From NCBI RefSeq assembly GCF_032854445.1, contig NC_088300.1, positions 9,426,001 to 9,490,000 of the forward strand: DNA of 64,000 nucleotides, written 5' to 3'. The notes beneath the pieces were generated by a model. It was not told the origin of the DNA. It worked only from the letters and a program-made list of their open reading frames with translations, and searched no databases. This DNA comes from Liolophura sinensis (taxonomy: Eukaryota; Mollusca; Polyplacophora; Chitonida; Chitonidae). A program made the position numbers and the translations under genes. Position 1 is the stretch's first letter. Every line of letters begins with the position of its first letter. Positions 21,301 to 23,381 of this stretch are shown one piece after another.

Positions 21301-23381
21301 TAAGGCACACTTAGCAAACATACCTCAGACGGCTATGGATCGTTTGTGAAAGAGGCTCTACAGTTGACCTGCGAATTATTTTTTTGCATTGGGATTGAAA
21401 TACAGACACAAAGGATCACATTAAAAGCTTGTATCTTATCAGTAAAAGCTTTTTGACAACTAGAAATAGTCTCTGCTTGTTTTTTTTTTTTTTTTTTTTT
21501 TGATTGGTGTTTCACGCCGTACTCAAGAATATTTCACTTATACGACGGCAGCCAGCATTATGGTGGGTGGAAACCGGGCAGAGCCCGGGGGGGGAACCCA
21601 CGACCATCCGCAGGTTGCTGGCAGACCTTCTCACGTACGGCCGCCAGCATGAGCTGGACTTGAGCTCACAGCGACCGCATTGGTGAGAGACTCCTGGGTC
21701 ATAAAATGGTTCTAGTGATATCATGAGGCATTGTCAGCTTATAAGGTGTAAGAAGCAGTCACCAGCAGACAACATTGTTAAGGTTCAGCCATCAATGAAA
21801 GTTCTGAACTTTGATGAAATACAAGGTTTACAGTCACATAGCTTGAACTCCCTGGTGTCGCAACACTTAGATTAAGTGAAAATGGACAGCATTGTATGTC
21901 TAGCAAGTCGGTGCAAGCAGTGTACACCTTGTTGTTTTCTGTAACATACGTCACATTTTCTATGTACATGTAAGTTTGAAAAGGTAGTTGACAAACACTG
22001 CTGCTGAACAGCAGCCAAGGTGAAAAATATTCCCCGGTGAATGGTTGCATGGATATTTCTGCTTTACTGGGCAAGGTAGGCAACTCCTACTTAAACTTGT
22101 CTGTACAAGTCTTTTAGCAGTATCTAGAGGATAATATATTGGCGTCCACTTCTACTTTCAGGCAATGGCACAATTGATTTCCCAGAATTCCTTACAATGA
22201 TGGCAAGAAAAATGAAAGATACAGACAGCGAAGAAGAAATCAGAGAAGCATTCCGAGTGTTTGATAAAGATGGGAATGGATTTATCAGTGCAGCAGAGTT
22301 GCGGCATGTTATGACAAATTTGGGTGAAAAATTAACAGATGAAGAAGTTGATGAGATGATTCGGGAAGCTGATATAGATGGGGATGGACAAGTGAATTAT
22401 GAAGGTAAGACTTGTGTGTGTGTTGTATATGGAATATGCAGAAGTAGTTAATCAAGGAATGCTTGTGTGAAGAATGTACTATCCTGTATATAATAGAACT
22501 AGAACACTAGCTGCTTTTAACCGCTGATAACATTGACCCTTACTGTCGTGTGCTTGTTCCAGAATTCAGTGTTTTTCCACACCCCTCATGTAGACCCTTG
22601 CCTGAATATTCTTAACGATATATCAATGTTGGCTCCTTTACCAGAGTATAACGAGTTTGCTGTTATATTGTGCCCTAGCTGGAGCCTCTCTTTGCTGAAT
22701 ACTGCTATGATGTAGTGAAGTCTTATTGCATGCCAAGTTCGCTATCGTCAGTTTTTTTTTTTTTTTCATTTATTTTCAGAGTTTGTGGCAATGATGGTGT
22801 CAAAATAGAAACCCTGTTCCCCACGATGCGTAGGCTGATTTAAGAGCGTCCCCTTCCTGTGTAGAACGTAGTGACATGCACAGCACAGCTGTAGACAGAA
22901 TGGCCGCCATAGCATCTGATACCTTTTTAGTGGGCGTTGTTTATGGTTCCAAAGCTTTGGAGGCATGGAAGCTGCTACTTGAAGCATCCATTGTTTGATA
23001 TCCTCCAACTAGTCACCTTCCATACAACCTTGAATTTGCTTATTTTTGTATTGCCTTTGTATATTTGCGTTGTAAAGTGAAGTTCATGGTTTCATTGTAT
23101 TTAAATTAACTTGATTCATTTTTCCTTCTGACTGTAATCCCCTAGAGCTTCAAGTGGTTAATCTCATGTCATGGATTGTTGCCTGCCTCCTCCTTAAAGA
23201 ATGATTTTGATGAAATGTATATGCTCAATGTAAGATTAGTCAAAAGCACAATTGAACATCATGTATCAGTATTTATTAGTGTATATAATTAACTATGTCA
23301 GTCACTTATTTTCATTGGTTCAACAACTGTATAAATAATCTTTATTTTGCAGAATTCGTCACAATGATGACATCCAAGTAA
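12377..23381 (+). CDS. CALM: Calmodulin, full gene with alternative last coding exons
   Basis: Coding exons: 12377-12379 (ATG only), 18889-18919, 19207-19350, 22162-22404, then either 22780-22808 or 23353-23381. Each product totals 450 nt, giving 149 residues with Met. All introns have GT-AG ends. The protein is the universal calcium sensor, which binds four Ca2+ and then activates kinases, phosphatases, channels and myosins in cytosol and nucleus. Four EF-hand loops are intact: [36 protein letters not shown] and [12 protein letters not shown]. The sequence, including the FIS in loop 3, is as strongly conserved as arthropod calmodulin, and no key residue is missing. The last intron splits the codon of the twelfth-position Glu of loop 4; both terminal exons restore it. 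Introns 1 and 3 (6.5 and 2.8 kb) carry SINE copies. Identity is certain; relative use of the two endings is not visible here. Confidence 0.97.
18235..18460 (+). mobile_element. tRNA-derived SINE, family C
   Basis: The tRNA-like head has an A-box-like tgatctattggttgaagtg and a B-box-like gagattaaacctgg. A short body and a tail, gattgttaagtatgacgtga, follow. The tail resembles those of families A and B, although the head differs. One copy was seen in the window. Confidence 0.6.
18745..18853 (+). mobile_element. Family B SINE, 3' fragment
   Basis: Carries the family B 3' half only (tggttacctcccaccat, then cgtaaaacaccaatcaaaca). It ends about 35 bp before calmodulin exon 2, so the repeat lies close to the branch-point region of that intron. 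Confidence 0.7.
18889..18919 (+). CDS. CALM: Calmodulin exon 2
   Basis: 31 nt encoding [10 protein letters not shown] plus the first base of the next Glu codon. It is bounded by tgtttcag and gtgaag. Confidence 0.95.
19207..19350 (+). CDS. CALM: Calmodulin exon 3 (EF-hand 1 and start of EF-hand 2)
   Basis: 144 nt, entered after ctgtttcag. It ends inside EF-hand loop 2, splitting the Gly codon after DAD, and is followed by gttagt. The exon length matches the equivalent vertebrate exon. Confidence 0.96.
19617..19840 (+). mobile_element. Family B SINE in calmodulin intron 3
   Basis: Head and B-box-like tgagttcaagtcagctc, then tttcctcccacaataatgc, then the tail aagtgaaatattcttgaat and an AT-rich end. 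Nearly full length but diverged. Confidence 0.75.
21481..21715 (-). mobile_element. Family B SINE in calmodulin intron 3
   Basis: Inverted copy that starts with the reverse complement of its A-rich tail (a run of about 22 T). It then has gattggtgtttcacgccgta, a body and the B-box-like gagctcaagtcc on the minus strand. It is one of the best-preserved copies and has a G-rich expansion near 21588. Confidence 0.85.
22162..22404 (+). CDS. CALM: Calmodulin exon 4 (rest of EF-hand 2, EF-hands 3 and 4)
   Basis: 243 nt, entered after ctactttcag and left at gaag/gtaaga. It equals the sum of two vertebrate exons (107 and 136 nt), so the intron that vertebrates have between them is absent. The exon ends within the Glu codon at position 12 of EF-hand loop 4. 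Confidence 0.96.
22780..22808 (+). CDS. CALM: Calmodulin alternative terminal exon a (FVAMMVSK ending)
   Basis: 29 nt after a long T-rich tract and tattttcag. It encodes the split Glu (GAG) and then FVAMMVSK and TAG. Relative to exon b it has Ala for Thr and Val for Thr, at positions 143 and 146 when Met is not counted. There is no splice donor after its stop. A transcript using it would therefore read into a 3' UTR, either ending nearby or running on through exon b. I see no AATAAA before exon b. The acceptor and pyrimidine tract are stronger than those of exon b. Confidence 0.85.
23353..23381 (+). CDS. CALM: Calmodulin alternative terminal exon b (FVTMMTSK ending)
   Basis: 29 nt after ctttattttgcag. 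It encodes the split Glu (GAA) and then FVTMMTSK and TAA, the common invertebrate calmodulin C-terminus. The phase is identical to exon a, so the two are interchangeable. Its pyrimidine tract is shorter than that of exon a. The 3' UTR probably runs to the AATAAA at 23966. Confidence 0.9.

What the first reader, a model, noticed from the sequence alone, without database searches (positions are those of the whole stretch)
22780..23381. Calmodulin has two interchangeable last coding exons giving different C-termini
Two 29-nt segments 545 bp apart each follow a valid acceptor. Each restores the same split Glu codon, encodes an EF-hand-4 exit helix and ends in a stop: FVAMMVSK (a) or FVTMMTSK (b). 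The changes, Thr to Ala and Thr to Val, are conservative in size, and both copies are intact, which argues against a decaying duplicate. Calmodulin is nearly invariant and protein isoforms from a single gene are unusual. The change falls in the helix that packs against targets in the C-lobe, and it removes two hydroxyl groups.
Basis: partly seen in the sequence, partly recalled or inferred. Interest (0 to 1): 0.85.

Follow-up and report, generated by a model that had tools for sequence, protein, structure and literature searches.

The report
Chiton calmodulin with two last exons
In a chiton genome, the gene for calmodulin, one of the least variable proteins in animals, carries two intact alternative last exons that would give it two slightly different tails; the DNA argues that both are used, but no RNA has been checked.

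Summary
Two 29-nt last exons follow the calmodulin exon-4 donor (22404): a (22780-22808, EFVAMMVSK*) and b (23353-23381, EFVTMMTSK*). With b the protein is textbook invertebrate calmodulin; with a it differs only at residues 143 (T to A) and 146 (T to V). The assembly's statistics match the chiton Liolophura japonica. Among the 20 strongest calmodulin or calmodulin-like genes scanned there (this one and 19 others), only this one shows two last exons. Exon a does not look like a decaying copy: 7 of 10 third codon positions differ from b but 3 of 19 first/second positions, and simulated neutral decay gives this in at most 22 of 4,000 runs (3 of 4,000 with an intact, 8-of-10-identical frame). Its acceptor scores first of 3,790 + strand AGs in the window. 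Best reading: a protein-changing alternative 3' splice site. Splicing is inferred; no RNA was available. The main rival is an orphaned last exon of a lost tandem neighbour, because a and b are not each other's closest relatives. The gene is not a lone calmodulin gene but the edge member of a cluster, and the changed positions are among those that vary in its paralogues, so the functional effect may be modest.

The parts
12377..12379 (+). Likely coding part of exon 1 (ATG, followed by a GTAAGT donor)
   Evidence: One of four ATG|GT candidates upstream, chosen by me for its GTAAGT donor. That the first exon of mollusc calmodulin encodes only the start codon is stated in PMC6171432 (passage). Not proven.
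18889..18919 (+). Calmodulin exon 2 ([10 protein letters not shown])
19207..19350 (+). Calmodulin exon 3 (EF-hand 1 and part of EF-hand 2)
22162..22404 (+). Calmodulin exon 4 (rest of EF-hand 2, EF-hand 3, most of EF-hand 4), shared donor GTAAGA at 22405
   Evidence: 98% tblastn match to canonical calmodulin; identical to it over the 80 residues compared
22752..22779 (+). Acceptor of exon a: run of 15 T (22752-22766), then T-rich to CAG
   Evidence: first of 3,790 + strand AGs in the window with a matrix from 18 paralogue last-exon acceptors
22780..22808 (+). Alternative last coding exon a (split Glu, [11 protein letters not shown])
23330..23335 (+). TATAAA, possible non-canonical 3' end signal for exon-a mRNA (speculative)
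   Evidence: the other weak hexamers between a and b are AATAGA at 22804, over the stop codon, and TTTAAA at 23100. CATAAA and GATAAA are listed for abalone calmodulin mRNAs (PMC6171432 Table 3)
23353..23381 (+). Canonical last coding exon b (split Glu, [11 protein letters not shown])
23966..23971 (+). First AATAAA downstream of both exons; likely poly(A) signal

Best explanation
The gene makes two calmodulins by choosing between two 3' splice sites for its last coding exon. The exon-4 donor at 22404 joins either the near acceptor at 22780 (375-nt intron), giving CaM-a with Ala143/Val146, or the far acceptor at 23353 (948-nt intron), giving canonical CaM-b. There is no AATAAA or ATTAAA between the two. 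So I expect CaM-a mRNA to run through exon b as untranslated sequence to the shared signal at 23966: an alternative 3' splice site in one composite terminal exon. A less likely variant is an end at the non-canonical TATAAA at 23330. The near acceptor has the stronger polypyrimidine tract, so exon a is probably taken unless a factor on its U-rich tract blocks it. Shown: exons, frames, acceptors, substitution pattern, and uniqueness among the genes scanned. Inferred: splicing, its regulation, and any functional difference.
For: Both exons give complete 149-aa calmodulins. They are the only two genome-wide pattern matches and the top two profile hits in the window. Constraint: 7 of 10 third positions differ against 3 of 19 first/second positions (Fisher P 0.006). 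If b evolved under full constraint and a neutrally, the pattern arises in at most 22 of 4,000 runs over the 21 settings tried (seven branch lengths, three transition biases), and in at most 3 of 4,000 together with an intact frame and at least 8 of 10 identical residues. The 150-base stretches before and after a and b are no more alike than shuffles, so the two have been separate for long. The acceptor of a scores 19.4 (first of 3,790 + strand AGs), that of b 12.0 (fourth). A mussel (Mytilus edulis) peptide listed as [22 protein letters not shown] has Ala143 (PMC5518491, one table row seen); that it is a calmodulin end is my reading of its letters.
Against: No RNA or protein evidence from this animal. 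None of the 19 other genes scanned has a second last exon, so there is no parallel in the genome. No related species' locus could be searched. Exons a and b are not each other's closest relatives, so the constraint on a may predate its joining this gene. The constraint test rests on 29 nt and takes b as the ancestor. The acceptor matrix was trained on this family's last exons; the acceptors of exons 2, 3 and 4 of the same gene score only -1.6, 5.9 and -1.8 in it, so it is no general measure of splice strength.
Confidence: 0.7

Rival explanations
1. Orphaned exon: exon a (or b) is the last exon of a neighbouring tandem calmodulin gene whose other exons were lost or fused by unequal crossing-over in this cluster. 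The constraint was exerted in the former gene; current use is absent or incidental.
For: The gene sits at the edge of a tandem calmodulin cluster (13 loci listed in 230 kb). At 26 coding bases a agrees with b in 17, with the 9.29-Mb paralogue in 19 and with two others in 18; b agrees with two paralogues in 21. Exon-limited sequence exchange seems to happen here.
Against: Only 544 bases lie between a and b, and I saw no trace of exons 2-4 there (one search lists no match in that stretch). The donor-to-b stretch matches nowhere else in the genome (that search skips simple repeats and very common words). Frame, stop and a strong acceptor are all intact, which needs a recent event if unused.
Confidence: 0.17
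2. Exon a is spliced but regulates amount rather than protein: its inclusion, followed by use of a donor after its stop (GTAAGA at 23230) joined to exon b, would make an NMD target.
For: A donor-like site lies at 23230. A stop more than 400 nt before a junction would be expected to trigger NMD (recalled rule).
Against: GTAAG-type sites are common by chance. The amino acids of a are preserved beyond what a poison exon needs (6 of 8 residues after the split Glu identical to b, third positions free).
Confidence: 0.06
3. Decaying duplicate of exon b with no function.
For: Two amino-acid changes; one gene of the 20 scanned has it.
Against: Substitution pattern, intact frame and stop, first-ranked acceptor in the window.
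Confidence: 0.04
4. A sub-case of the best explanation, not exclusive of it: both isoforms are made but are functionally equivalent. Tail positions 143 and 146 tolerate change, and the alternative exon only ties protein ends to different 3' UTRs.
For: Positions 143 and 146 vary in the ten closest paralogues while Phe141/Met144/Met145 are the same in 10 of 10. The two forms would differ in 3' UTR.
Against: Not tested. Calmodulin's last residues are otherwise well conserved among animals (recalled).
Confidence: 0.35

Closest known systems
Canonical invertebrate calmodulin (PDB 2bkh chain B, u23495)
   Same: CaM-b is letter for letter this sequence; CaM-a differs at two residues (alignment read).
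   Different: The known gene, as recalled for Drosophila, has one last coding exon.
Abalone (Haliotis discus hannai) calmodulin genes CaM A-D (PMC6171432)
   Same: Mollusc; five-exon genes; several non-identical calmodulins; 11 of 54 coding substitutions lie in the short exon 5. Tail diversity is thus a shared theme.
   Different: Four separate genes. The authors conclude that they are not splice variants of one gene.
Alternatively spliced human calmodulin-2 (Kamp et al. 2012)
   Same: A splice variant of a calmodulin gene has been reported; only the title was seen, as a reference in PMC3816731.
   Different: The nature of that variant was not read here. A human gene, so not this exon pair.
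Blue mussel peptide [22 protein letters not shown] (PMC5518491 table)
   Same: Calmodulin-like C-terminus with Ala143 as in exon a.
   Different: Thr146, not Val146; whether mussel makes it from an alternative exon is unknown.
Tandem alternative last exons / alternative 3' splice sites in animal genes (general class, recalled)
   Same: Shared upstream exons joined to one of two homologous terminal coding exons.
   Different: I saw no report of alternative last coding exons for calmodulin in the listings searched.

Membership tests
Calmodulin (canonical) | 149-aa, four-EF-hand protein identical or nearly so to animal calmodulin | tested here: met
   CaM-b identical to PDB u23495, CaM-a 147 of 149
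Calmodulin (canonical) | Mollusc calmodulin layout: five exons, first one with only the start codon | tested here: inconclusive
   Exons 2-5 give the full frame and the abalone genes have five exons; exon 1 here is only a candidate
Alternative last exon / alternative 3' splice site | Two acceptors compatible with one donor, each followed by an open frame to a stop | tested here: met
Alternative last exon / alternative 3' splice site | Transcripts that use each acceptor | not testable with these tools
   No RNA data held for this genome
Alternative last exon / alternative 3' splice site | Protein-level constraint on both exons | tested here: met
   29 nt only, so modest power, and constraint may have acted before the exon joined this gene
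Tandem exon duplication | The two exons are each other's closest relatives | tested here: not met
   a:b 17 of 26 nt; a:9.29-Mb paralogue 19; b:two paralogues 21. With 26 bases and signs of sequence exchange this is weak evidence; flanks dissimilar. So I do not file it as a proven tandem duplicate
Alternative last exon with its own 3' end | Separate poly(A) signal for the upstream exon | tested here: inconclusive
   No AATAAA or ATTAAA between a and b; weak variants TATAAA at 23330, TTTAAA at 23100, AATAGA at 22804

The most novel reading that the evidence does not exclude
Calmodulin in molluscs has an old, regulated splice switch in its last exon that makes a second, tissue-specific calmodulin with a more hydrophobic outer face on its last helix (Ala143/Val146, or Ala143/Thr146 as in the mussel peptide). 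Chitons then added tandem gene copies that vary the same tail residues, so tail variety is a general way in which these animals diversify calmodulin signalling.
Probability: 0.25. Interest if true: 0.78.

Novelty: new member of a known kind. Interest (0 to 1): 0.5.

Why it matters
Calmodulin is the textbook case of an invariant protein; vertebrate gene copies encode the same amino acids (stated in PMC6171432). A splice choice that changes its C-terminal helix would be a natural experiment on which tail residues matter, and would make calmodulin isoform choice measurable from ordinary RNA-seq. The setting, a chiton with a cluster of calmodulin copies that vary the same tail, makes it testable whether tail diversity is selected.

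Tried and rejected
Chance match of 29 nt: rejected. A second last exon in other family members: none seen in the 19 strongest exon-4-like matches other than this gene, in the stretches fetched, which end about 0.7 to 3.4 kb past the likely last exon. The best extra candidate was DFVNLIFSKL in L011, score 17.5, with a poor pyrimidine tract, a split Asp and no stop in the ten codons read. Weaker calmodulin-like matches (for example C1:19089374, C3:26286493, C6:9368618) were not fetched. Capture of a repeat or segmental duplicate: the donor-to-b and b-to-3'UTR stretches match only themselves (those searches skip simple repeats and very common words). Retrocopies that would fossilise the exon4-a junction: none found; the 96-nt junction query matched exon-4 copies and exon a separately. 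Exon-a-like pattern in viral contigs: no match. PDB: isoform a was compared with solved chains; in the five alignments shown no chain has Ala143 or Val146, but 147 sequences passed the threshold, 60 were listed and the rest not seen. Literature: ten searches, of which eight bear on calmodulin splicing or tails, one on calmodulin clusters and one on the species. Their listings (titles and abstract starts) showed me no calmodulin gene with alternative last coding exons, but led to a reference title on alternatively spliced human calmodulin-2, so splice variants of calmodulin as such are not new. The Aplysia calmodulin gene paper (Swanson 1990) is known to me only as a reference in PMC6171432; it was not read, so a precedent there cannot be excluded.

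Full report
What is there. The window lies in a 609-Mb assembly of 632 contigs. Its mitochondrial contig C632 has cox1 (found with Pfam) on one strand with reading frames that I name by eye atp6, nad2, nad3 and cox3, and on the other nad1, nad6, cob, nad4L, nad4 and nad5. I recall this as the order of chitons and some other molluscs; it was a lead only. The published chiton Liolophura japonica assembly has 632 scaffolds, 609.5 Mb, a longest scaffold of 96,433,062 and one of 27,489,247 (passages of PMC11068029). Those two lengths equal contigs C1 and C3 here. The window's contig differs slightly (82,493,220 in print for scaffold 2, 82,489,547 here), as does the total (609,495,693 and 609,464,459). 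I take the organism to be L. japonica.

The gene. Exons 2 (18889-18919), 3 (19207-19350) and 4 (22162-22404) plus an ATG give, with exon b, a 149-aa protein identical to the invertebrate calmodulin of PDB 2bkh chain B, and with exon a the same protein with Ala for Thr143 and Val for Thr146 (numbering without the first Met). The start codon is probably at 12377, just before a GTAAGT donor, chosen from four ATG|GT candidates.

Not chance. A degenerate pattern for a calmodulin last exon with acceptor occurs exactly twice in the genome, at a and b, and never in the backwards control. A profile built from 16 paralogues' last exons ranks b and a first and second of 2,437 stop-free + strand AG sites. 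Third is part of exon 4 itself, then 14.8; the best of 2,359 on the - strand scores 14.4.

Not obviously decaying. Between a and b, 7 of 10 third codon positions but 3 of 19 first and second positions differ (Fisher P 0.006). Since b must be constrained, I simulated a neutral a beside a fully constrained b. The observed pattern arose in at most 22 of 4,000 runs in any of 21 settings, and in at most 3 of 4,000 together with an intact frame and at least 8 of 10 residues kept. The 150-base flanks of a and b are no more alike than shuffles, so the two are old relative to each other. The acceptor of a has a run of 15 T and scores 19.4 bits, first of 3,790 + strand AGs in the window; b scores 12.0, fourth. 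That matrix was made from 18 paralogue last-exon acceptors including two exon bases, so it favours this family; it is not a general splice predictor, and the acceptors of exons 2-4 of the same gene score low in it (-1.6, 5.9 and -1.8).

How it most likely works. One donor, two acceptors, in-frame stops in both exons: an alternative 3' splice site that changes the C-terminal residues. No AATAAA or ATTAAA lies between a and b; the first AATAAA is at 23966. The simplest mRNA for CaM-a therefore carries exon b in its 3' UTR. Abalone calmodulin mRNAs are reported with CATAAA and GATAAA signals (PMC6171432 Table 3), so a separate end at TATAAA 23330 cannot be excluded. The nearer and apparently stronger acceptor would make exon a the default unless repressed; this is inference.

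Surroundings. Calmodulin is not a lone gene here. One search lists 13 exon-4-like loci within C6:9.22-9.45 Mb, of which this gene is the last, and five more at 14.54-14.65 Mb. I scanned the 3' parts of the 19 strongest other genes. Each gave at most one plausible last exon, with clear ones such as EFVKMMTSK, EFVSMMQSK, EFVTMMHSK and EFIKMMTSM, and weak candidates in L012, L014, L017 and L019. None gave two. So 1 of 20 genes scanned has the pair. In the ten closest paralogues the tail varies at 142, 143, 146, 147 and 148, while Phe141, Met144 and Met145 are the same in 10 of 10. Exon a follows that rule. From recalled structures, Phe141, Met144 and Met145 face targets and 143/146 lie elsewhere on the helix, so I expect a modest rather than drastic change of target binding.

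Main doubt. At 26 coding bases, exon a agrees with b in 17 and with the last exon of the paralogue at 9.29 Mb in 19; b agrees with two paralogues in 21. A tandem duplication of b is thus not shown. Exon a could be the last exon of a former neighbouring gene, constrained there and now orphaned. Against this, I saw no remnant of exons 2-4 of such a gene in the 544 bases between a and b, and the stretch from donor to b matches nothing else in the genome.

Comparison. Abalone has four calmodulin genes with different products, with 11 of 54 coding substitutions in the short exon 5, and the authors conclude that these are not splice variants (PMC6171432: first fifth of the text, sections 11 and 15 and passages read). 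A mussel peptide ending EEFVAMMTSK is listed in a review table (PMC5518491, one passage), which suggests Ala143 in another mollusc. A paper title on alternatively spliced human calmodulin-2 (Kamp 2012, seen only as a reference in PMC3816731) shows that splice variants of a calmodulin gene are not without precedent. The listings of my literature searches showed no calmodulin gene with alternative last coding exons; the library lacks most subscription papers, among them the Aplysia gene paper.

Verdict. A real and probably functional alternative last exon in a calmodulin gene; ordinary in kind, unusual for this protein. The decisive test, junction reads in existing RNA-seq, is simple but could not be run here.

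Noticed in passing
window 22162-22404 and G000:C6:9289905-9290147 (locus L001): Exon 4 of this gene and of the paralogue about 158 kb away (opposite strand) agree in 235 of 243 bases, with the last 136 bases identical up to the donor, while the introns on both sides show no evident similarity (local scores only, no shuffles made) and exon 3 agrees in only 120 of 144. In the 18 other genes exon 4 agrees in 118 to 215 of 243. This looks like gene conversion limited to an exon.
   Followed up: partly
G000:C6:9222248-9448406 and 14542634-14652399: Clusters of 13 and 5 calmodulin or calmodulin-like loci in the chiton genome. The paralogue at 9.29 Mb differs from canonical calmodulin, over exons 3-5, only by Asp78Glu and Thr143Lys; its exon 2 was not compared.
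   Followed up: partly
G000:C99: Seven cox1 matches about 15.5 kb apart on one contig: a head-to-tail series of mitochondrial genomes, probably an assembly artefact.
   Followed up: no
window 21480-21700: Intron 3 holds a dispersed-repeat-like stretch beginning with a run of T (GATTGGTGTTTCACGCCGTACTCAAGAATATTTCACTT); similar pieces are seen near 18845 and 25490 (by eye).
   Followed up: no
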